Positions 10,200 through 60,887 of a DNA stretch of 64,000 nt are shown one piece after another. The position numbers and the translations under genes are program-made. The stretch is taken from the NCBI RefSeq assembly GCF_000004075.3, contig NC_026657.2, positions 6,758,001-6,822,000 of the forward strand. The letters are read 5' to 3'. Below the pieces are notes generated by a model that had not been told where the DNA came from, made no database searches, and saw only the letters and a list, made by a program, of their open reading frames with translations. Position 1 is the first letter of the stretch; the number at the start of each line of letters is the position of its first letter. This DNA comes from Cucumis sativus. Its lineage: Eukaryota > Streptophyta > Magnoliopsida > Cucurbitales > Cucurbitaceae.

Positions 10200-10535
10200 T
10201 TAGAAGGAAACCCGAAAGCAACCGAGGTGGTGGTGGTGGTGTTGTTGTTGGTGGTGGTGGTGGTTATGACGGCGGTGGAATGAATTTTCACGGTCAATCA
10301 TGCCTTGCACGTGCCGAAACTCTTCCACATGGCAAGGAATAGCGATGGTCCCCTTCTGATCAAATCCGTATTCTTCCTCTGCCTCCTTCAGTAATTGCAT
10401 GAACCGCGGGTGATTGAAATACATCACCGGCACCACAAATCTCTGTTGCTCTTCCCCTTTCTGCCCCACTTTCACCGCCAAACACCCTTTCGGCACGGTG
10501 GCGCTGGACTGCCGTCGTCTCTCTCCGCCGCCCAT
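10200..10535 (-). CDS. SAUR32-like small auxin-up RNA protein
   Basis: SAUR proteins are short plant proteins induced by auxin and other signals; many bind and inhibit PP2C.D phosphatases and so promote plasma-membrane H+-ATPase activity and cell expansion. This intronless gene encodes 111 residues. The SAUR core runs from about 14 to 82: VPKGCLAVKVG, then QRFVVPVMYFNHPRFMQLL, EAEEEYGFDQKG and IPCHVEEFRHVQGMID. A histidine-rich tail (about 88-103) and the ending GCFRVSF are features of the SAUR32 subgroup as I remember it. The lack of introns and the length fit the family. The start at 10535 gives the expected MGGG...VPKGC beginning. AT-rich TATA-like sequence lies about 20-40 bp upstream. 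Whether this member is auxin-inducible cannot be told from sequence. Confidence 0.93.
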   Translation of the reverse strand: MGGGERRRQSSATVPKGCLAVKVGQKGEEQQRFVVPVMYFNHPRFMQLLKEAEEEYGFDQKGTIAIPCHVEEFRHVQGMIDRENSFHRRHNHHHHQQQHHHHHLGCFRVSF

Positions 10536-13500
10536 TTCTACGACGACTCGATAAAATATATAAAGTATATATGTACGTGTGATTTGAAAGGATATATGAG
10601 AATTAAAAGGAGAGAGAGGGATTTGGAGGGGAATTTGAAGTTGAATTCAGAGATGGGGAAAAGGCCAGGGATCTGATGGAGTGAAGGGAGGAAGTGTGAG
10701 AGCGTAAAACGAGGTGGGATTGGGGGAGTAATTGGGAATGGCCATGAGACTGTGTTTGGTTTTAATTAGAATTAGATTTGTTGAGAGAGAAAGGGTTCCA
10801 ATTAGGGTTTGGTTATATAGGAATTTGGGAGTGAATTAAAAACCATAGAAAGTGGAAGTGGGTCTCCCCCTCCCTCTTTGTCTATGCCTTCCCATCAAAA
10901 AGCATCCACTTCTTTCATTTCATTTATAGATACTCTTCCCCTTTCCCCTTTCCCCTTTCCTCTTTCCTTTTCTTTTCTCCTTTTCCAATTCATTCAATTC
11001 CTTACACCAAATAATTCTCCAATTTATTCAAACTCTAAATTTCGTTTAATTGTAATTTATAAAACTGTTCAAACATGTTATTCAAAAGAAAGGTAAAAGT
11101 AAAAGGTGAAACTGAATAAGAGAGAAGGCAGAATATATAAAATGAAGGTGCGTGTGGGAGTAAATTTAAATTATTCGTTTGATTCTAAAACATCCGTAAT
11201 ACGGCGACGTATGAGGGTGATTAAGAAATGAGAAGACACGTGAAAAGAGAGCGCCCGTGTGGAAGGAAGGAGGACACGAAGAGAAAGGGAAGTGCCGACA
11301 TGAGACTGAGGTGTCGTTCAATGAAGGGAAGAGGAGAACGACAAGTCGACAGGAGAAAGAGGGAAGAAAGAGGGGAGCTCAGTGGTCTAACATTTAACAC
11401 AAAAACATTAATTGCTTCCCCAATTCATTCATTCATTTACCTTCTTCTTCTTTTTTTTTTTCTTTTTCCAATAGATTAAACTAAGAAAATCAAATTAACA
11501 TTGGTCATTTTGAACGATAGTTTGTGATGATGTTAGATTCCAACTTTTTTTTTTATTTGTCTCACTTGGGTATAATTTTGAAATGTTTACGAAAAGTATC
11601 GAAGAAAATGTGATTCAAATGAAAGATAAGGTTTAAGAGTTTTCTTCGACCTCAAATTTAATTATAATATTTCTACTTTATCTCATAGTAATATTTTTAT
11701 GAAAGAAAGGCTCTACGTTTGTTAATGTATTTTTAGGATTTATAAAGAAAATGCTAATATAGATTATTCTATTTTTTTATAAAAAAAATCAACATTTAAG
11801 AGGGGATGAATAATCAATAAAATAAAAAAAGAAAAAAGAAAAACTAAAATTGAAGGACGGAAATAAACCCATAATAAATAGGGACAATGTCCTTTATAGT
11901 ACCAATGGAGACGTTGTGTTTTACTTAGGAAATGTATGGATTGAAAACTTCGAATTAATTAAATTTAATATCATAACTAAATTTAAGTCAATGGTTTAAT
12001 TCACCTTTACAAGCAATAGAAAGGTTAATGAAATTAATTAGGGTCAAATTTAATCATTAGGTACTCTATCCTATGTTGATCATAGTTAATAATACCACTT
12101 TCTTCAATAGTATTTACACCAGGAAGAATCAACTAAACAACTTACTTAGATTGAAATAAGATATAGATGGAAAGAACACTAATTAATCTTAGCTTTAATA
12201 AAAGAGTTACAAGGATTGTTTAACTACAAACATATGATATTATTACGCTTTGATATGTTAATTATTCAAAAGCTAAACCCAATACATTGATTAAAAAATT
12301 TTGTATCGGAAGGCATGATTACATAGGTTAAAGAAGCATTATATTTGAAAAAAGATGCAAAGTGAGATTAGAATAAGGGGAAAAGAAGTAAGAAGGGGAA
12401 AGAACCACACAAAGTGGGAGAGATTGACTTCAAAATATACCTTTGCCATTATAACAAATACAACTCATTATTATGAAATTATATATATTATATGCAATGG
12501 GCATTATGTGTATATATGTTTTTATGTTTAAATTATATAAAATATTTCATATATTTTCCTTTTATTAAAAAAATAAACAAGTTTTTTTTTTCTTTTTTAA
12601 TTTCAAGTTATTATAATGAAGGATGATGGGCTTTGCGAGTGGGAGACGGGACCATTTGAGCTAATCATGGGATAGCTATTAGGCCGGCCCAACTAGGCAG
12701 AGTTTCACTCAGATAATTGGGCCAGCTAAAGGTCCAGTCTTTCTAACTCATCCCCACATTTTTCTCAACAAAAATTGAAGTGTTGAAATTTATTTAAGAT
12801 TTTGAAAGCATTTTTTAAGATCACACTTCAAAACAAAGAAAATTTCCAGCACAAAAATATGTGTTTCTTAAAATAGAACCCTAAACACAAACCTAAAACA
12901 TTTATCCAATTGAGCTTTAATTTAAATGATCATTTTGTATCTATATAATTTGTATAAATTACAAAAACATAGAGAGTTCACGATAGGTTAAAATTACAAA
13001 TCCATTGTTTCAATTTGATTTGGATATCTAATGTCTCCTCACTTTCAATTTCAATTTTGTGTCTAATACAAAATATCCATACCTACTAAAATCTTTAATC
13101 TATTCAATATATCTTTAACTATTGTAGATAGGACAAAAGTAAAAGTTTAAAACTCTATTAAACATAAAACTTAAACTTACATTAAATATAAAAAACAAAA
13201 AGCTATTTGACATAATGAAGTAATTAATATCAAACCAAAAGTGTTTTTATTATTATGCACTGGTGGATACAAGAAATGTATGAAACTACTTTCTTTAATT
13301 TCAAAAGCACTCTAAAAAGTTGGAAAGAAAAATTTGTTTAGTCAATATATATATATATATATATATATAATGAAGTAAGAGTTAAATTAAAAAAAATATA
13401 TATAAAAAAAGAAGCTGTGTTGAGTCTTTATTGGATTCACAAAATTGGAAGGACAGTGGTAGCCCTCCTCAAATGGGGAAAACTGCAAACTTTTTGTTGG

Positions 13501-28703: not shown

Positions 28704-28819
28704 AGGCATAAAATAAATGATCAAATATATTAATGTTAGTGTTAGTACAAATCATTCACTCTCGTAACACCTGGTTTAGGAATAAAGCCTTGTGATAACC
28801 AAACTGAATCTTAAGCAGC

Positions 28820-29594
28820 ATGCTAAATGAAGATGCTGAATATTCTCCCCCAGCATCCATGGCAGAGGCTTTTGCCATGAGAAAGAAGAGTATGAACAGA
28901 AGAAGGTTTAGCGAAGAACAAATCAAATCACTTGAGTCTATTTTCGAATCTGAGTCTAGGCTTGAGCCCAGAAAGAAGTTGCAGCTGGCGGGAGAGCTGG
29001 GTTTGCATCCACGCCAGGTTGCAATATGGTTTCAGAACAAGAGAGCTAGATGGAAGTCAAAGCAACTTGAACGAGACTACAGTGTTTTACGAGCTAATTA
29101 CAATACTCTAGCTTCCCGGTTTGAAGCTCTTAAGAAGGAAAAACAAGCCTTGACTATGCAGGTATGTGTTCTTTATTTCTCTAGGAAAAGACCCGCTGTT
29201 TCTTGAATTTTGCTAATCATTGTTGTTTCTTTTATTTGGGCAGTTGCAGAAGCTAAATAATCTGGTACAGCGGTCCATGGAGGAAACTGAGAGCTGCAGG
29301 GGAGTTCTCTCCATAGAAACCATTGATGGCAAGTCTGAAATTGACCACAGAACTAAGTACGAGTCTGAAGTAAAACCTTGTTTGTCAGCTGAAGAGAAAT
29401 CAGAACATGAATTAGAGGTTCTTTCCAACTACGGTAGTGGCGTAAAGGAAGCCTATATTGGATTAGAGGATCCCCAGCTCAGGGAATCTTCTCAAGGTTC
29501 CCTGATATCAACACCAAATTGGAGTAATCTAGACTCTGAAGGTCTTTTCAGTCAGTCTAATACCAATGGCCAGTGGTGGGACTTCTGGTCGTGA
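28820..29594 (+). CDS. HD-Zip class I transcription factor, ATHB-7/ATHB-12 type
   Basis: Class I HD-Zip proteins bind CAATNATTG-like DNA as dimers; the ATHB-7/12 group acts in ABA and drought responses and growth restraint. Two exons, 28820-29161 and 29244-29594, join in phase 0 (ATGCAG|GTATGT ... GGGCAG|TTGCAG) to give 230 residues, close to ATHB-12 in length as I recall. The homeodomain spans about 24-84 with [19 protein letters not shown] and the recognition helix [17 protein letters not shown]. The leucine zipper follows at about 85-125 ([20 protein letters not shown]) and crosses the intron. The C-terminus ends with the aromatic WWDFWS typical of the group. The ATG at 28820 gives the usual ...EYSPPAS... 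start; the second ATG at 28859 is also in frame. Possible AATAAA-like signal near 29638. Confidence 0.95.
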
Positions 29595-51174: not shown

Positions 51175-52478
51175 ATGGCGGGTCGTAATTTTGGTCGTCT
51201 GTACCGTTTTTCTTCTGCCAACCGACCCTTAGCTCCCGTCACCAATACTTCAGGCCAAGATTCGGCTCAGTACGATGGCCGTCGGTATCCTTCGTCCGCC
51301 CGAGACACGTCGCTGGAACCCCGGTCGTCACCGCCACGAGTTGCACTGAGGAGAGATGATCAACCCCTTCCTGCTTCTCCCACGTACTCTATCAAGAAGG
51401 CCACTTCTCCCCCGTCTTCTCCGTCGTATAGGGCTCCGGCTGCTCGTGGGATCAGCTCGCCGACTAAGACGGTGGATGAATACCCCAAGTATAAACCTAA
51501 TACTCAACCCAGGTTGGTTAAACAAATTTAATAAGCTTGCTATTTTATTTTTATTTAGAAAGAAAACAAATTGAATTAATTTGTAGACAAATAATTTATT
51601 TTAATTAAGAACATAGATTAGATTTTTGAACTTGCAATTAAAACGTAATTAAATAGCAAAACAAAATTAAACAAGTGAAAACAAATGGAGTTTATAAACA
51701 TCATCTTGTAATCAATGTTTTGTTTCTAAAAATTAAGTTTAATTTCTCTTCAATTATAAATTAAACTTTTTCAAAAAAAAAAAAAAAAATATATGTTTTT
51801 AAAACTACTTTAATCATAAACAATTTTTAAAATATATAAAACACAGATGTTGAATCAAATAAATTTATAGAATTAGTTGTCAAAAACAAAAGTAGAGTTA
51901 CTCCTCAAAATAGCTATGAAACGAATCAAAATTTTGATGCTTTAATCATCGTTACACCAACTATTGCATGAATAACAACTATTTGTTCATATTTTTAATG
52001 AAGGTCACCGGAGGCCAAACAAAAACCAGGGATATTCCACAAGAGTACTGTCGAGAAGGTGACGAAATCGGACCGTTATCATGAATCGAGCAAAACGTTG
52101 TCATCCCACAAGGGGCAGCTGCAACCAAATGCAATTAACATCAAGGGAGAGAATGTTGGGGCAGTAATGGAAATTGTTGAGTCGTCAAAACGGGAAGGGG
52201 GGCATATGATAAAGAAGATCAAAGAGACAGCAAGAGGAATTTTAAACAACAACGACATGGCTAATGATCAAAACAACGAAGCTTCAAAAGCACCTAATTC
52301 CTCAATGCCAACAAACACTTTTCTAAATAGCAATTTTCAGAGTGTCAACAATTCCCTTCTTTACAATGCAAATTTGACTCACCGTGATCCCGGTTTACAC
52401 CTCGCTTTCTCTCGGAACCCGACTGGTGAGCGGTCTGGTGTTGATGATCACAAGAAACAACACCATACAAGATACTAG
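51175..52478 (+). CDS. Proline/serine-rich protein, tandem family copy A
   Basis: I do not recognise a named family. Two exons, 51175-51512 and 52004-52478, join in phase 2 (CCCAG|GTTGG ... GAAG|GTCACC) to give 270 residues. The N-terminus MAGRNFGRLYRFSSANRP is a basic, aromatic variant of the MANLPRxGR start in the other copies. The first exon is rich in Pro and Ser with SPP/SPS motifs, probably disordered and phosphorylated. The C-terminal exon carries box 1 at about 157-170 (INIKGENVGAVMEI) and box 2 at about 219-248 (FLNSNFQSVNNS then HRDPGLHLAF). No signal peptide or membrane segment is seen, so a cytosolic or nuclear location is inferred. This is the only copy on plus and the most divergent: it lacks the LALPRS block of the others. 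AATAAA at 52543. Confidence 0.82.
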
Positions 52479-54308
52479 AGAAAACACAGAGGATGGAGAT
52501 GAAACAAAATATGATATATTATATATTGTTATATTTTATGAGAATAAAATGAATTTTATATGCTGATTTTATGTAACGAAGAGAAAGATGAGGATTCAAG
52601 TTTTATTATTGTGTGGTTCAGTGGTTGGCTTTTGCCATTTCTTTACGTACCTTGAAATAATATATGAGTTTGGATATTCTATATTAGATTTCTCTTCTAC
52701 GTGTTTTTTCTAAAAAAAAATGATACAAGGAATATTAGATCATAGTCTTTCAACGAATAAATGACGTATATTTTAAATGGTTAAACTTCGTTTTGCTTGT
52801 AACGGGCTGGTATAGTATAATAAAAAGAGATTTAATGATATATAAGCATAACGCCATCAACACTTTTTATTTATTTATTTTACATTTACGTTCCTGTAAC
52901 ATAATATTCCAAGTTAAACCCTAGATACAATCTTAATTTATGTGTTACATCTAAACATTATGCTAATTTTAATATTAGAAAACTAAAATCAAACATTGTG
53001 AGTTTTTTATATTTCTTTTTCAAATATATATCAAATTATCAAATTATTATTATTATTATATGACATATAGACGACGATCTTGAATTTCATATTTATCAGA
53101 TGAATAATATTAAAGGACATATTTGAGTATATCTTAAAAAGAGGTGACAAAGACTTTCATCACTAGAATAGAGTTTTAATGTGGGCTTTTTTACCTATGA
53201 AATAAATTTAAACTAATTATATAATGAAAAATGGTTTAAAAATACTTTTAACAACCCATTTATATTTTTTAAAAAATGTACAACATTCTTTAAAGCGAAT
53301 CTAGCCATTGAAGTCAAAATGACATTGATTCGAAAGTTGTAAAGTTTAATTTCCTACCCTAGTTATAACCGTTGTAGTGAAAAAAGAATACATAATAGGT
53401 GGATGATTCCAAAGCTTTGAACATGGTTAGATGGATCATAAAGAAGATGGGTTGTGGGGGCATACAAAAAATTAGGAAAAAGTAAAGCAGAGAAAAATAA
53501 GCTTGAAAGTTTCATGTATCTTCTAATTCTTATTCTTTTCGTTATAAATCAATAATAAATGTTTTTTGGTCTTGAATTGATATTAATTTTTACTTTGTAA
53601 GTCTACCACCTTAATCATAATTTAGGTGTATATGCAATTATAGATTAAACCTTATTGTTAGTTTATGTTCTCTTTAATTTTCTCTCATCATAATTTAGAA
53701 GCTATATATATACATATAAACATGTAAACAAAAAGTACTTTTCACTTGTTTGAAAAGCATGTTCACAAGTGCTTTATCAAGTGTGATTTTGACGTAATTA
53801 AAGGATTAAATTTTGCTTTAATTTCTTAAAATTATATATGGATCATAAACATTACATTAACTATATATACATTAAACACACTGCTTTAATACCATATGAA
53901 TTTCTATACAATTTTGCTTTAAGTCAATTGAAAATTTCAGAAATTAAGAAGGAATGAAACATATACATATACACACTTTTCTAATTATAAGTAACAATAA
54001 TTGAAATCACAAGTCTTGATTAAACTAATACTGTTTTTTAACATTAGCATTAATATATCTCACCGTAGCTCTTTATTATTAACAACTCATTTTCCAAATA
54101 CTTAAGCCAACAATTACATAACTTTTATAGAGTGGAAATACATGTTCCATATGAAGATATAAATATAAATATCAACATAAAATGGTATAATAACTATTAT
54201 TATATTGTTGCTGTGATATTGTTGTTTTATTATATTTATGATTATTTTTTCAGCAGCTTAAATAATATATAAGTATATAGAATATATAATAACTGGTCCA
54301 TATATACT
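52479..54308. other. Intergenic, between family copies A and B (convergent)
   Basis: AT-rich spacer holding the 3' ends of two convergent genes. No further gene, pseudogene or RNA recognised. Confidence 0.55.
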
Positions 54309-55409
54309 TTAGTGCCTTGAATCATGAATTGAATCGCCATGTTTAGACTTCTTCGAGCCAAAAGCAAGGTGGAGACCTGGATCACGGTGGCTTAAAGAAG
54401 AATTGTAAAGAATAGAATTGTTAACGCCTTGAAAATTGCTGTTCATAAACGACTTCCCTGGATAATTTGAATTTGATTTGTTTGTTTTCTCTTCATTTTC
54501 TTTGCTTTGTCCAACGGTTGGCTTTTTCTTTATTACTTCTGAGCCATCAGATGATTGTGTGATGTGCATCACTGCCCCTACGTTCTCCCCTTTTATGTTT
54601 ATAACGTCACTCTGCAGCTGCTGATGCTGCTGCTTCTGCTGGGGTTTACTCGCGCCGTACTCATCGTTTTGGCGGTAATGATCGGTTTTTGTTGGCTTCT
54701 CGGTTGTTGTCGTCTGGTAAAGAATCTTTTTTTGTTCGATCTGTTTAGCGTTGATGTAAATAAAGTCATTAATCATCACTCTTAAGATCGATGGTTATGT
54801 TGCAATCTATTATAATATGGGTTACGATGAAATAAGTTTATTGTAATTAATTAAATATATGAAGAGACCATTGAGTGAGCTAGAAACTTTACGTTAATTA
54901 ATTTAACTAATTACCTCCGGCGGGCTCCGAGGTCGAAGGGAGTGTTCAGGTTCACGTCTCACCTGCGATCGCGGCAGAGCCAGAGGAGAGAGTGGTGCAA
55001 CAGCGGTGGGAACGGTAGAGTGTCTAGGCTTGGACGGAGACGGTGGGGGAGAGATATGGGTGGGTTTAAAAGTTTTGGGAGATGTTGTGGCACTAGTCCG
55101 ACGTTCACCTTCGTAACGGTTATGCACCGGAGGTGGAGATAGTGGTTTACGAGGCGAAACGGTGCCGGCGCCGCTATATTTTGGAGAAGACGGGGGCGAG
55201 GAAAATTTTTTAACCGGAGATGAAAGACGAGGGGTTCTTTGTTTTATAGGAGACGTTTGAAAAGTATTAGTGGTTGGTACAGCTGAGGGAAAAACTTCGG
55301 GCTCGGTGGCCGCCGTGAATGGTTGAGGTTCCGGGCGGGTGGCAGTACCAGGACGCGGCAGAGAAGAGAAGCGGTTCCATTGACGGCCGAAACGAGGAAG
55401 ATTTGACAT
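54309..55409 (-). CDS. Proline/serine-rich protein, tandem family copy B
   Basis: Same unnamed family as copies A, C and D. Exon 1 is 54915-55409 and exon 2 is 54309-54740; the junction CCGGAG|GTAATT ... AAACAG|ATCGAA is phase 0, giving 308 residues. The start is MSNLPRFGRQWNRFSSLPRP. The middle of exon 1 is dense in SSP, SPP and PSP motifs, with the block PLSPLALPRSQVR before the intron. Exon 2 has a Gln-rich stretch (about 198-208), box 1 at about 212-225 (INIKGENVGAVMHI) and box 2 near the end (FMNSNFQGVNNS then HRDPGLHLAF). An alternative donor at LPRSQ|V exists but would shift the frame. The intron sits at the same place as in A and C but in another phase, so its donor has probably moved. 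Confidence 0.83.
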
Positions 55410-57131
55410 TATTAATAAAAAATAATTAAAATTAAAAAGCTAAGTTTATTCCAATTTATAATAATAATAGGTAGAGATGGTGAAATGGAATTGAGCTTTG
55501 TGAGTTATTTATAGTGAGAATACAATGATGATAAAATTGAAGACACCATTGGAGAAGAAGAGAAGCATCAGATTCAAGAAGAGAGCAAATAGAAGAGGCC
55601 AACAAAAAACACTCCCAAAGCAAAGAATAATTTAATTTTGGTTTCAAAAGAGACATAATGGATTATTCTCATTCTTCTCACCCAAATCAAGCAATCCAAA
55701 TATTGTCAAAAACACTCCATGTTCTTTATGATCTCCTTATAGTTAATAATAATTCCTTAACATTTTATATATATTTCTAAATGACATTGATTTAAGTTGA
55801 CATGATCTCAATCATTTTAATGTTGGTAATTGTTACAAATATTTGGGCTATTTGAGATTATTGTATTAACTTTTAAGTGTTGAATATTGATATTTAAGTG
55901 TGATTCAATGAATAAGATTCCTTATTTATTTTCTACTTAAAGTCATCTCTAGTGTTGTCCAACAAAGAAAAAAAAGCCATCTATAGTCAATGATTTTGAA
56001 TCGTTGATTATAATTTAAAAGTAATATGTTTGGCCTAGGAACAAATAATAGCTATTGTATCATTAGGTGGATATCACTATCTTTAATGTGTTATTATTGG
56101 TGATCATCTAAAGATTAGTCAATTTAAATTTAAATATGATACTTTTTGGAATCACTTATAAAAATGATATCATGAAGTGGAGTATTTTGATTTCTTTCCC
56201 TTGAAGAAAATAGAGAATCGTTTTTGTATTTAGGATGGAACATGAAGAACATTAGGAACGTCCTTTTGCGCCACAAAGACTCCTCATAATGTGTTTTTCC
56301 ATATATAATTATTTGCCCGTAATTTTTTTTTTTTAAAAAAAGAATCCAAATATTAGGGTTCTTATTGGAAGTACAAAAAAAAATATTGTTTTTTTTTTCA
56401 ATACATAAATTTGAAACCTTCCGAAAGAAAATAACACATATCAATTATTGTTGGGTTATATATAGAGAGAGTATTTTTCTCTTCGATTTTTGTATACTTT
56501 TAACTCGTATAAATTTATTAGAAGAAAAAAAAAAGTAAAGGTTAGAGCTTAAACCATTTACATCAAGATAAAGTTATATGTCCATGCTCGATTTGAGAAA
56601 CTATAGATGTCTTGTAACCATTCTAGCTATCTCATTTCTTTTACCATAACCCAAGTTAGGGGTGTTAATTTTTCTTTCGAAAGTAATTCATGAATATTAT
56701 TTTAAACAAAGTATCACTGGAATTTAAAGAAAATAAATTTAATATCAATATTATATAATTTTTTGAAGAATTTAGTGAATTTTTTCTGGAAGGGACATTC
56801 CTCTAGTGACAAAAACAAAGAGTTGTATTGGGAAATATAATGTGAGTATTTTAATGAAAAATGTGAGTTTATGCCAATATCGAGATAACACGGAGTAGTA
56901 AACGGTGATTTGATTATTTTTCCATTCAACTAAACTCGAGTTTTTTACCATAATATTTTATTTTATTTTATTTCTTAAAAGAAAAAACCCTTTTTTTTAT
57001 TTTCTATAAACTAGCCTATACTTTTTAAGAGAAATTTCTTATAATATATAGTTTATTAATGGTTACATAAAATACCCATATAAATGGCTTATTTCATATA
57101 ATAAAATAGTAGTACTTCTCCGTCCATATCC
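55410..57131. other. Intergenic, between family copies B and C
   Basis: Begins with the promoter of copy B (minus). The remainder is AT-rich with T and A tracts near 56320-56400. No additional gene or remnant copy was recognised. Confidence 0.55.
55505..55513 (-). promoter_or_regulatory. TATA box of family gene B
   Basis: TATAAATAA on minus, about 100 bp upstream of the ATG at 55409. Confidence 0.7.
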
Positions 57132-58276
57132 TCACTGGCGCAGCTTGGGCTTGTAACTCTTATCGCCGTCAACAACGGCTCCACCGCCATCCGCCGCATT
57201 GGGAAACGAGAGATGCAGGCCGGGATCACGGTGTTGGCACGACGAGTCGAACAGAAGAGAATTGTTTACACTCTGAAAATTACTGTTCATAAATGCGCTT
57301 ATCGGCGGTTTCTTCTTTCTCCCCGTTTTCTTATCTTCATGTCCATATCCATCGACATCCCCGTCGTCTTCTGTTTCTTTCTTTTTTAAGGTTTCTCCGC
57401 CCAAACGGTAGCCAGCGGATGACTTGTTTACTTCCATGACGGCGCCAACGTTATGTCCTTTGAGTTTCATAACCCCCGGCTTCTGCTGCTTTTGGTGTAC
57501 TGACTTGCCGGAGCCGTGCTCCGACTGCCGGTTTGACTTTGATGGCTTCTCATCAGCGGCCTTGTTGTATACAATCCCTTTGGTCTCCACCTCCGGTTGA
57601 ACCCTGAATATTATTTCTAATAATCTAGTCATAATTTCTTTCAACAAATATCAAAGTGTTTTTAAGTATAATAAGTACATGTGTACTGAAGTTGAATCTT
57701 TGTGTATATAAGTCAAAGTTACTTAATTGGACTAACAAATGAGAAAAAGTTGAATAAATATACATTTGCAGAAGTGAGCTCAAGGATGAACAAAAAGAAA
57801 ACAAGGGTAATAGTAATAAATAAATACAAATATATTTAACTGATAATTAAATCAATATACCTGGGTTGAGCCGTCGTCCCGTTCCCGGTTATCACTTGGC
57901 TACGTGGCAGAGCAAGAGGAGATAGCGGCGACGTCTTTGCTGGCCGGGACTTGGCCGGCGTCAGAGGTGGGGTTGTTTCCCCATTCCTCCTCTCAAGATA
58001 TTTATCTCCAATCGAATCCGGAGGCGACCGTGTTGCCTTCGCCGCCGGCGAACTGTCCACACGTGATGCAAACGGTGACGTGGCTTTCTTCGACGGAGAA
58101 GAAAGCGGGCGAGGGGATTCTCTCCGGGGAGAAGCCGGGGCCGGCGTAGTGATGGACGTAGCATACGGCATAGTTTCATACTTGGGTTCCACAGCAGGCT
58201 GTGCTGCGGCGGGAACTGGCGGCGGTACCGAAGAAAGACGTTGGCGTGTACGGCCCAAGCGAGGAAGATTTGCCAT
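57132..58276 (-). CDS. Proline/serine-rich protein, tandem family copy C
   Basis: Exon 1 is 57861-58276 and exon 2 is 57132-57603; the junction CCCAG|GTATAT ... TTCAG|GGTTCA is phase 2, as in copy A, giving 295 residues. The start is MANLPRLGRTRQRLSS. Exon 1 is Pro/Ser/Ala-rich and carries SPLALPRSQV shortly before the intron, as in copy B. Exon 2 starts RVQPEVETKG, then basic and Gln-rich sequence, box 1 (KLKGHNVGAVMEV), a DDGDVDGYGHEDKK acidic stretch, and box 2 (FMNSNFQSVNNS then HRDPGLHLSF). No signal peptide or membrane segment. Function unknown; the conserved boxes point to a short binding motif, which is inference. Confidence 0.83.
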
Positions 58277-60041
58277 AGCAAAGAAAATGGAAATTGAAAA
58301 TAGAATTAAGCGATATATTGAAAAGGCTTATGTGTTGCCAATTTATTTATAATGTGGAAATTGAAAATTATGAGAGAAGATCATATGATTCTCTAAAAAC
58401 AAATAAAATTCTCACAATTTCTTTAATGGTAAGATGTGTGGTAGAGAATTTTTTTGAAGAAAAGAATATAATCGTACTTATTTGTTTAAGAATGATATAT
58501 ATAGCAAATTTAGTTGGAAGAAAAATCATAATTCAATCTTATAATTTAGGAAAATGAAGGGGAAATAATCAAACAAAACTCAAATTCTATCAATAATTTC
58601 ATCAATATGGAAAATTGCTATATTTTATATTTGAAAATTTCTCTATAATTTATAAAAATTTAGAATTGAATGTATGTGATTTTGGTATAAAAGAAAGCAT
58701 AGAAAATGGGAATAAAAAATCTTGTAGTTAAAGATGAATAATTTGATTGAAGTTGCCCTACATTTATTAGACCAAGGAATATTAATTTCATATATTCTTT
58801 AAGCAACATGCATTACAAGTCATCACTAGCAAATAAAACACAGCCAAAACAACACTTAAAATTTGATTTTATTTAACATAAAATAGGTAATCAAAATTAA
58901 AGGAATTATAAAACTATAGGGGATTTAAAGGCCATTATTATAAATAATTACACCTAATTGTGGATTCCCATCACTTTAATTTATTAGGGAATCTCATTCT
59001 CATGGAACCTACGGATTTGATTATTACTGATTTTTTTTTTATATATACATATGTTATTCATATCCAAGTTCTAAATTGGTTGTGTACGTCAAAATATATT
59101 TGTTAGTACTGTCAAATGCAAAATTAGAAGATTTTAGTGTCGATGTTGTGATGATTTGATATCTCATTTCAGAGACACAATGTTCTTTCGAGGACATCAC
59201 ACTGAAGTTTTGAATATCCTTTTAAAACATGAGTTTTATAAATTTTCATATTGATTGGAATAGACTAGATAGTTTTAAGCAATAGTTACCTACTTAAACC
59301 ATAGGAAGTCTAATCACGTCAAGACTTCAACCTATTTATTTTTTTATCAACAAAAATCTCTCAAATTCATTTTGATTTTTTAAATTCGATAATGGCAGTG
59401 TTAAAGAGGTGATCAATTGAGGTAAATGGCATGAGAATAGGAAACAATGAAACATACATAAACCTTAGCTTAAATTTCAGATTAAAATTCTATTGATCCT
59501 TAAATTTATATTTTGTTATCAAACAATTAAAAAGGTCTATAAATACAATTAGTTAAATTAATCGATGATGTAACTTATATATTTAGAAGATTAGACTATC
59601 TATGAACAAACAAACATGATCAAATAAACATAAATTAAAAACTATTTTATTGTGACAAACTTAAATTTCTTGTATCATTTTTCCCTCTTTACTTATTTAT
59701 TTTTAAAATAAAAAAAAACATTAAAATCCATTTGAATTCAATTAAAAAAATGTTTTAAAAAAACTCATTTTTATTTAAACTATTTTTTTATAAAAATGAT
59801 TTAAAATACATTTATTCCAAACACTTCTAATTTTTTTTTGGAAGAACTTCGAAATAACATACTTTATAAAGTAAAGAATTTAAACACATAAGTAGAATAA
59901 ATAAAATAACAATTATTGCGAATTTATTTGAGAGTCAGTTTTGATTTTTGCGAACGAGAAGATTAATTTCAAAGCATTAACAATTCATATAAATATAAAG
60001 CCTTTAAAATTATATAACCGATTCCTCCTCTCTCTTCCTCC
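58277..60041. other. Intergenic, between family copies C and D
   Basis: The first part is the promoter of copy C. A weak third relative of the TCTATCA foldback repeat may be present at about 58580-58640. Otherwise AT-rich with no recognised gene. Confidence 0.5.
58343..58351 (-). promoter_or_regulatory. TATA box of family gene C
   Basis: TATAAATAA on minus, 75 bp upstream of the ATG at 58276. Confidence 0.7.
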
Positions 60042-60887
60042 TTAGTATTTAGATTTCTTGTTGCCATCCACCGTGGCTGCTTCATCCTTCTGGCCGGAGA
60101 AATCAAGATGCAGTCCCGGATCACGGCCACTGCAAGACGAATTATACATAACTGAATTGTTCACTTCTTGGAAATTGCTGTTCGTGATTGGCGTCATCGG
60201 AAATTCGGTTTCTCTGCGACTTTTCTCCATGTCATTTTCTTGTTGGACGCCGGTTTTCGTTTCGATCTTCCTCGTGACTTCTCCGCCTGAAATTTTATCG
60301 GAGAATTGGTTAATTTTCATTACCGCGCCAATGTTATCTCCCGTGAGGTTTATAGCCTTCGCCTGTAGGCTCGGCGGCGGCTTAGCGGATACGTTATCTA
60401 CCTGCCGATCCGACTTCTTGAACGAATCTGTTTTCTGCTCCACCTCCGGCTTGATAGCGGATGGAACCGTCGTCACATCTGCGGATTTGGGTAGAGCCAG
60501 AGTGGAAAGTGATGGCCTCGTTGGCTTGAGGGGTTCTTGATACGAATTAGGGCTAATAGAGTGCCTTGGGTCAACGGATTTGCGTGGAGGGGACACCGGT
60601 GGTGATCGTGCGGGTTTCAGCGGAGGACTGGCTTCACGTATGACGGTAGCTTCATATTTTGGCGACGCGGCGGGGGGAGAAATGCGAGGAGTAGGTTCTC
60701 CTGGAGTGGAAGATGGGGGAGCCGCCGCCGCTGGCGGGGTGGGTTCAAAAGGTTGCAGAGTTTGGATGGTTGGAGCCAATGGCAGAATCTCCGGCTCTGG
60801 TTCTTGAACAGACTGTGTGGCAGTAGGAGCAAGGCGGGAGACTGTGGAAAGACGCCATCTCCGACCATAGCGCGGAAGATTAGCCAT
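60042..60887 (-). CDS. Proline/serine-rich protein, tandem family copy D (intronless)
   Basis: A single open frame of 281 residues holds both halves that copies A-C split over two exons. Start MANLPRYGRRWRLSTVSRL. The middle is very rich in Pro, Ser and Ala (for example PPAAAAPPSSTP, SPPRKSVDPRHSISP), with STLALPKSADV matching LALPRSQV of B and C. IKPEVEQKTD then matches VQPEVETKG at the start of exon 2 in C, so the intron position is closed cleanly. Box 1 is NLTGDNIGAVMKI (about 178-190) and box 2 is ITNSNFQEVNNS then GRDPGLHLDF. No signal peptide or membrane helix. The intact frame and conserved boxes argue for a working gene. Function unknown. Confidence 0.85.
   Translation of the reverse strand: MANLPRYGRRWRLSTVSRLAPTATQSVQEPEPEILPLAPTIQTLQPFEPTPPAAAAPPSSTPGEPTPRISPPAASPKYEATVIREASPPLKPARSPPVSPPRKSVDPRHSISPNSYQEPLKPTRPSLSTLALPKSADVTTVPSAIKPEVEQKTDSFKKSDRQVDNVSAKPPPSLQAKAINLTGDNIGAVMKINQFSDKISGGEVTRKIETKTGVQQENDMEKSRRETEFPMTPITNSNFQEVNNSVMYNSSCSGRDPGLHLDFSGQKDEAATVDGNKKSKY

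What the first reader, a model, noticed from the sequence alone, without database searches (positions are those of the whole stretch)
51175..60887. Tandem cluster of four genes of an unnamed proline/serine-rich plant family
Four genes about 3 kb apart share a start motif (M-[AS]-N-L-P-R-x-G-R in three, a variant in the fourth), a long disordered Pro/Ser-rich middle, and two C-terminal boxes: G-[EHD]-N-[VI]-G-A-V-M-x-[IV] and SNFQ-x-VNNS followed by RDPGLHL. The middles diverge heavily while the boxes stay almost fixed, which points to two short functional motifs under selection. I know no described function for the family. One gene (A) is inverted relative to the other three and is the most diverged.
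Basis: partly seen in the sequence, partly recalled or inferred. Interest (0 to 1): 0.75.

Follow-up and report, generated by a model that had tools for sequence, protein, structure and literature searches.

The report
Plant gene cluster with shared two-box tail
Four neighbouring plant genes, very probably from cucumber, and at least four more elsewhere in the same genome make otherwise different proteins that share one small, strongly preserved two-motif unit that matches no catalogued protein domain tested here and whose job is still unknown.

Summary
In detail: four intact genes (A-D, window 51175-60887) share an N-terminal box, a Pro/Ser-rich middle and two C-terminal boxes. Four more loci in the same genome (G000, size fits cucumber v3) carry both boxes in the same order, so 8 of the 8 loci found have them, 20-60 residues apart; about 5e-6 such pairs are expected by chance. 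The weakest, H, rests on motifs plus E 0.015-0.48. The boxes read best as one module, carried on Pro/Ser-rich, very long Ser-rich, compact and hydrophobic-tailed proteins. No convincing match in Pfam, NCBIfam, PHROGs, PDB, or the prokaryote, viral and plasmid collections at the sensitivity used. Gene order places the cluster where AT2G46630 ('unknown') lies; sequence membership could not be tested. In the middle region dS is 1.70-5.62 or saturated; box 2 has dN/dS 0.07-0.24 in 7 of 10 pairs (3 saturated). Best explanation: phospho-regulated disordered adaptors with a conserved partner-binding module; this mechanism is inferred. Two AlphaFold runs on four rows gave no fold. Real, uncharacterised, moderately interesting.

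The parts
51175..52478 (+). gene A, exons 51175-51512 and 52004-52478 (predicted), 270 aa; tail-to-tail with B
54309..55409 (-). gene B, exons 55409-54915 and 54740-54309 (predicted), 308 aa
57132..58276 (-). gene C, exons 58276-57861 and 57603-57132 (predicted), 295 aa
60042..60887 (-). gene D, one open frame, 281 aa
51175..51228 (+). N-box of A (variant)
55350..55409 (-). N-box of B
58217..58276 (-). N-box of C
60828..60887 (-). N-box of D
52146..52169 (+). box 1 core (GxNxGAxM) of A
54567..54590 (-). box 1 core of B
57435..57458 (-). box 1 core of C
60318..60341 (-). box 1 core of D
52326..52409 (+). box 2 (NSNFQxVNNS to HLxF) of A
54360..54443 (-). box 2 of B
57204..57287 (-). box 2 of C
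60099..60182 (-). box 2 of D
54972..54989 (-). SPLALP motif of B
57905..57922 (-). SPLALP motif of C
60489..60506 (-). STLALP motif of D

Best explanation
A family of largely disordered plant adaptor proteins. Shown: a C-terminal module of two boxes (GxNxG[AT]xM and NxNxQx[VI]NNS...PG), always paired and in order in the eight loci found, is kept while the rest of the proteins changes; in A-E it follows an Arg-rich N-box and a Pro/Ser-rich middle. Inferred: the two boxes act together as one partner-binding surface that folds on binding; the middle is a flexible arm switched by phosphorylation, both at proline-directed sites and at the R-x-x-[ST] site that ends the N-box; the four tandem genes are old, retained duplicates, co-orthologous to the single AT2G46630, that differ in timing or in their middles while binding the same kind of partner.
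For: Eight loci with both boxes in order, gap 20-60 aa, about 5e-6 pairs expected by chance. Box 2 dN/dS 0.07-0.24 in 7 of 10 pairs not saturated, against 0.24-0.52 in 7 of 10 for the middle and 0.36-0.79 in 6 of 10 for the linker. N-box ends in R[FL][SG][ST] in 5 of 5 N-box genes. Carriers of different build: Pro/Ser-rich (A-E), compact (F), 823-codon Ser-rich frame (G), hydrophobic C-terminal tail (H). No signal-peptide-like hydrophobic stretch at the start of A-E: best 13-residue Kyte-Doolittle mean -0.20 to 0.64. Microsynteny with the AT2G46630 neighbourhood; AT2G46630 is listed with pS102-pT105-pT111 in a phosphoproteome (passage seen).
Against: No partner, transcript or localisation data. 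Two AlphaFold runs gave no structure, mean pLDDT 50.2 and 52.1 with four rows, which neither supports nor excludes folding on binding. [ST]P enrichment over shuffles is clear only in C (p 0.0165) and E (p 0.0085), not in A, B, D (p 0.31, 0.13, 0.19), and F has none. Some N-box and box 1 pairs are not clearly constrained (N-box up to 0.75; box 1 0.17-0.53 in the 4 of 10 pairs not saturated). That AT2G46630 carries the boxes was not seen. The tree of the eight modules is unresolved (0 of 5 inner branches supported).
Confidence: 0.4

Rival explanations
1. The two-box unit is a self-assembly module: short beta segments with an Asn/Gln ladder stack between molecules, in the way of HET-s or RHIM amyloid motifs, and the proteins form signalling clusters or condensates; the hydrophobic-tailed member H would seed them at a membrane.
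For: Box 2 is an alternating Asn/Gln stretch (N-x-N-x-Q-x-[VI]-N-N-S) in 8 of 8; two boxes with a variable linker; carriers of different build, one with a hydrophobic tail, 17-residue mean 3.29.
Against: No PDB match to a six-row profile at E <= 10 and no Pfam match to amyloid motif families among the proteins scanned up to E 10; hhalign sees no box1-box2 repeat; no strands in either AlphaFold model.
Confidence: 0.12
2. The N-box is an organellar targeting sequence (a mitochondrial presequence cut at R-x / S-[ST]) and the proteins work inside an organelle.
For: A-E have no acidic residue before position 25-30, net charge +3 to +5 in the first 20 residues, and R[FL][SG][ST] at 11-16. The cleavage rule is recalled, not looked up.
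Against: The sequence itself is conserved (LPRxGR; E matches the N-box pattern, 4 of 200,000 shuffles of its first 25 residues do), which is unusual for a presequence. F and H lack it. The putative orthologue AT2G46630 is a multiply phosphorylated protein.
Confidence: 0.13
3. Cell-wall hydroxyproline-rich glycoproteins (extensin/PRP-like).
For: Pro 8.9-13.9% and Ser 11.2-13.9% in A-E.
Against: No hydrophobic signal peptide, no SPPPP in the 7 proteins tested; SPPP only in B and E. No Pfam extensin or PRP hit.
Confidence: 0.03

Closest known systems
AT2G46630 ('unknown protein', T3A4.1) of Arabidopsis and its Brassica napus counterpart BnaA09G0560000ZS
   Same: Same place in gene order: next to AT3G61870 and the AAA ATPase AT2G46620, on the side of RS31 AT3G61860, with SAUR33 AT3G61900 on the other side.
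   Different: One gene in the B. napus table against four in this window. CYP78A9 beside it in Brassica was not found here among open frames of 105 codons or more (by eye), and an HD-Zip gene lies between cluster and SAUR here.
VQ-motif proteins (analogy only)
   Same: Small, largely disordered plant proteins with one short invariant motif; this description is recalled.
   Different: No VQ motif in the 7 proteins tested, no Pfam VQ hit.
HET-s / RHIM amyloid signalling motifs (analogy only)
   Same: Asn/Gln-rich short motif, two segments with a flexible linker; recalled.
   Different: No sequence match, no internal repeat.

Membership tests
AT2G46630 orthologue group | conserved gene neighbourhood | tested here: met
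   Cucumber order RRM gene - OSCP - AAA (At3g28540-like lid) - DUF4079 - D C B A - HD-Zip - SAUR against B. napus RS31 - WD40 - AAA AT2G46620 - AT3G61870 - AT2G46630 - CYP78A9 - TPR - SAUR33. That AT3G61870 is the DUF4079 gene, and that the RRM gene is the RS31 one, is recalled or judged by eye; OSCP, WD40, CYP78A9, TPR and HD-Zip do not match.
AT2G46630 orthologue group | both boxes present in AT2G46630 | not testable with these tools
   No plant genome but the window's own is held.
Two-box module family (defined here) | GxNxG[AT]xM followed by NxNxQx[VI]NNS | tested here: met
   8 of 8 loci found, gap 20-60 aa.
VQ proteins | FxxxVQx[LFVI]TG | tested here: not met
   0 of 7 proteins (G not included).
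Extensin / hydroxyproline-rich glycoproteins | signal peptide | tested here: not met
   Hydropathy of the first 42 residues of A-E, best 13-residue mean -0.20 to 0.64; no dedicated predictor run.
Extensin / hydroxyproline-rich glycoproteins | SPPPP repeats | tested here: not met
   0 of 7 proteins.
EAR-motif repressors | LxLxL or DLNxxP | tested here: not met
   0 of 6 for A-F; H matches LxLxL only inside its hydrophobic tail.
HET-s / RHIM amyloid motifs | sequence or profile similarity | tested here: not met
   No PDB match at E <= 10 with six rows; no Pfam match of that kind.
HET-s / RHIM amyloid motifs | forms fibrils | not testable with these tools
   Bench test.

The most novel reading that the evidence does not exclude
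The two-box unit is an undescribed plant assembly module: an Asn/Gln-ladder signalling motif that works through homotypic stacking, shared by long soluble, compact and membrane-tailed proteins, so that different members could recruit one another.
Probability: 0.1. Interest if true: 0.8.

Novelty: new variant of a known kind. Interest (0 to 1): 0.42.

Why it matters
The two boxes define a small domain for which no curated profile was found here. A profile of the module would join at least eight genes of one genome that are otherwise unalignable, including very long, compact and hydrophobic-tailed ones, and give plant annotators a handle on proteins now called unknown, Pro-rich or Ser-rich. The box residues name exact mutations for pull-downs, and the four-copy cluster against the single B. 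napus gene offers a natural test of what the divergent middles do.

Tried and rejected
Curated families: Pfam for A-D and for E exon 2, F, a 631-residue piece of G, and H, E up to 10: only Hamartin (0.69, D) and Peptidase_MA_2 (0.024, F), both far under their cut-offs. NCBIfam on eight modules: one chance match, ribosomal L22, E 0.12. PHROGs: none at 0.01. PDB: none at E <= 10 for D and for a six-row profile. Prokaryote genomes: 13 pattern matches, none confirmed; viral contigs: 21, none confirmed; plasmids: none at E <= 1 with B's module. The contig scans used box 2 patterns only.

Box 1 as a repeat of box 2: hhalign probability 0.1%. Box 2 as an autophagy-type [FWY]xx[LIV] motif: the aromatic is absent in E and H and in G. 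Structure: two AlphaFold runs on the four window modules, mean pLDDT 50.2 and 52.1, no secondary structure; no fold search was run on such models. Tree of eight modules: 0 of 5 inner branches supported, so whether A-D form one clade is open.

Papers: motif strings gave none or only unrelated papers; genome coordinates gave two unrelated papers; AT3G61870/DUF4079 gave a listing only.

Full report
Where it is. The window is G000:C3:6758001-6822000 of a genome of 226,625,048 bases in 88 contigs. The size fits the cucumber v3 assembly (226.2 Mb, 85 super-scaffolds, N50 31.1 Mb; passages of PMC6582320): contig C6 here has 31,125,843 bases. The species is an inference from size.

The observation. 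Four intact genes lie at the stated coordinates. A is on the plus strand and faces B tail to tail; B, C and D are on the minus strand. A, B and C need one intron each, D needs none. The predicted junction of A and C is the same (CAACCCAG^GT, phase 2); B and E are phase 0; F is phase 1. These junctions were picked by hand from many frame-compatible ones, whose output was cut, and no transcript backs them.

More members. D as query finds A, B, C and two further loci, E (C6:7.189 Mb, E 1.8e-6) and F (C4:3.897 Mb, 7.6e-6). F's module finds G (C2:18.909 Mb, 1.3e-4) and H (C6:6.005 Mb, 0.21). E's module finds G at 7.3e-8, F at 0.003 and H at 0.055. G's module finds E at 4.9e-7 and F at 4.6e-4, but not H. 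H's module finds E at 0.015, F at 0.028, B at 0.083 and G at 0.48, but not A, C or D. H therefore rests mainly on having both motifs in order. In 8 of 8 loci the regular expressions GxNxG[AT]xM and NxNxQx[VI]NNS are found 20-60 residues apart. From six-frame residue frequencies of the window about 1.7 chance box 2 matches and 5e-6 chance pairs are expected in the genome; the expressions were drawn from the same eight sequences, so this is an illustration and not an independent test. The tool scores only its best candidates, so eight is a lower bound.

Architectures. A-E: an Arg-rich N-box ending in R[FL][SG][ST], a Pro/Ser-rich middle, SPLxLP (not in A), E[VIA][EK]xK, box 1, linker, box 2. E starts MASQLPRPWFRLGS; 4 of 200,000 shuffles of its first 25 residues match the N-box pattern. 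F: 162 residues, 1.2% Pro. G: open frame of 823 codons, Ser-rich (its start codon was not settled). H: 123 residues ending in a Leu-rich stretch with a 17-residue hydropathy mean of 3.29.

Selection (NG86, 10 pairs of A-E). Box 2 dN/dS is 0.07-0.24 in 7 pairs, 3 saturated. Box 1 is 0.17-0.53 in 4 pairs, 6 saturated. N-box is 0.16-0.75 in 9 pairs. The middle is 0.24-0.52 in 7 pairs, with dS 1.70-5.62. The linker is 0.36-0.79 in 6 pairs. The tail after box 2 is 0.22-3.34 in 5 pairs of 15-18 codons and is not readable. So the duplications are old and box 2 is the best-kept part. Segments are short and dS is near saturation, so single values are rough.

Known or not. No curated family, solved structure, prokaryote, viral or plasmid relative was found at the sensitivities used. 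Motif strings found no relevant paper. Neighbours identified by Pfam (8 of 10 proteins with hits): CRIB/PBD, SAUR, HD-Zip, DUF4079 (two exons), AAA with At3g28540-like lid, OSCP, RRM. A B. napus table (PMC9102059, passage seen) gives RS31 AT3G61860, a WD40 gene, AAA AT2G46620, AT3G61870, AT2G46630, CYP78A9, a TPR gene, SAUR33 AT3G61900. AT2G46630 thus takes the place of the cluster between the AAA/AT3G61870 side and SAUR. It is called 'unknown' in two further papers (passages seen): with pS102-pT105-pT111 in a table of force-stimulated phosphoproteins (PMC13054138; the meaning of its score 0.5 was not seen), and in a manganese-deficiency table with the values -16.73 and 0.6 (PMC5090222; column heads not seen).

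How it most likely works. Two segments far apart in sequence that always occur together, carried on unrelated backgrounds, and kept while the linker drifts, suggest a bipartite binding surface. The Arg-rich N-box with a conserved R-x-x-[ST], the Pro/Ser-rich arm, and a phosphorylated putative orthologue suggest control by kinases. [ST]P sites exceed shuffles only in C and E. AlphaFold on four rows was blank, compatible with disorder or with too shallow an alignment. The adaptor reading is inference at 0.4. The bolder reading, an Asn/Gln-ladder assembly motif, is not excluded but has only composition and architecture behind it.

Noticed in passing
window 60042-60887 against 51175-58276: D has no intron while A, B and C need one between arm and module; the predicted junction of A and C (phase 2, CAACCCAG^GT) differs from that of B and of E (phase 0), so intron loss and a shifted boundary seem to have happened within the cluster.
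   Followed up: partly
L038 2253-2624 (C6:6.005 Mb): The smallest carrier of the module (H) ends in a Leu-rich hydrophobic stretch, as in a tail-anchored membrane protein.
   Followed up: partly
L035 (C2:18.909 Mb), minus strand: An open frame of 823 codons with repeated Ser-rich segments (SPSHLSRKP.AQSTSQQP type) and the two-box module near its end.
   Followed up: partly
window 28808-29591 +, 10203-10646 -, 118-864 -: HD-Zip, SAUR and CRIB-motif genes; with AAA, OSCP and RRM genes in L039/L040 they help place the region in Brassicaceae gene order.
   Followed up: partly
L036 1819-2658 (C6:7.189 Mb): E holds three near-identical tandem copies of a segment reading SSVVGSPKGRSTS in its Ser/Pro-rich arm.
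   Followed up: no
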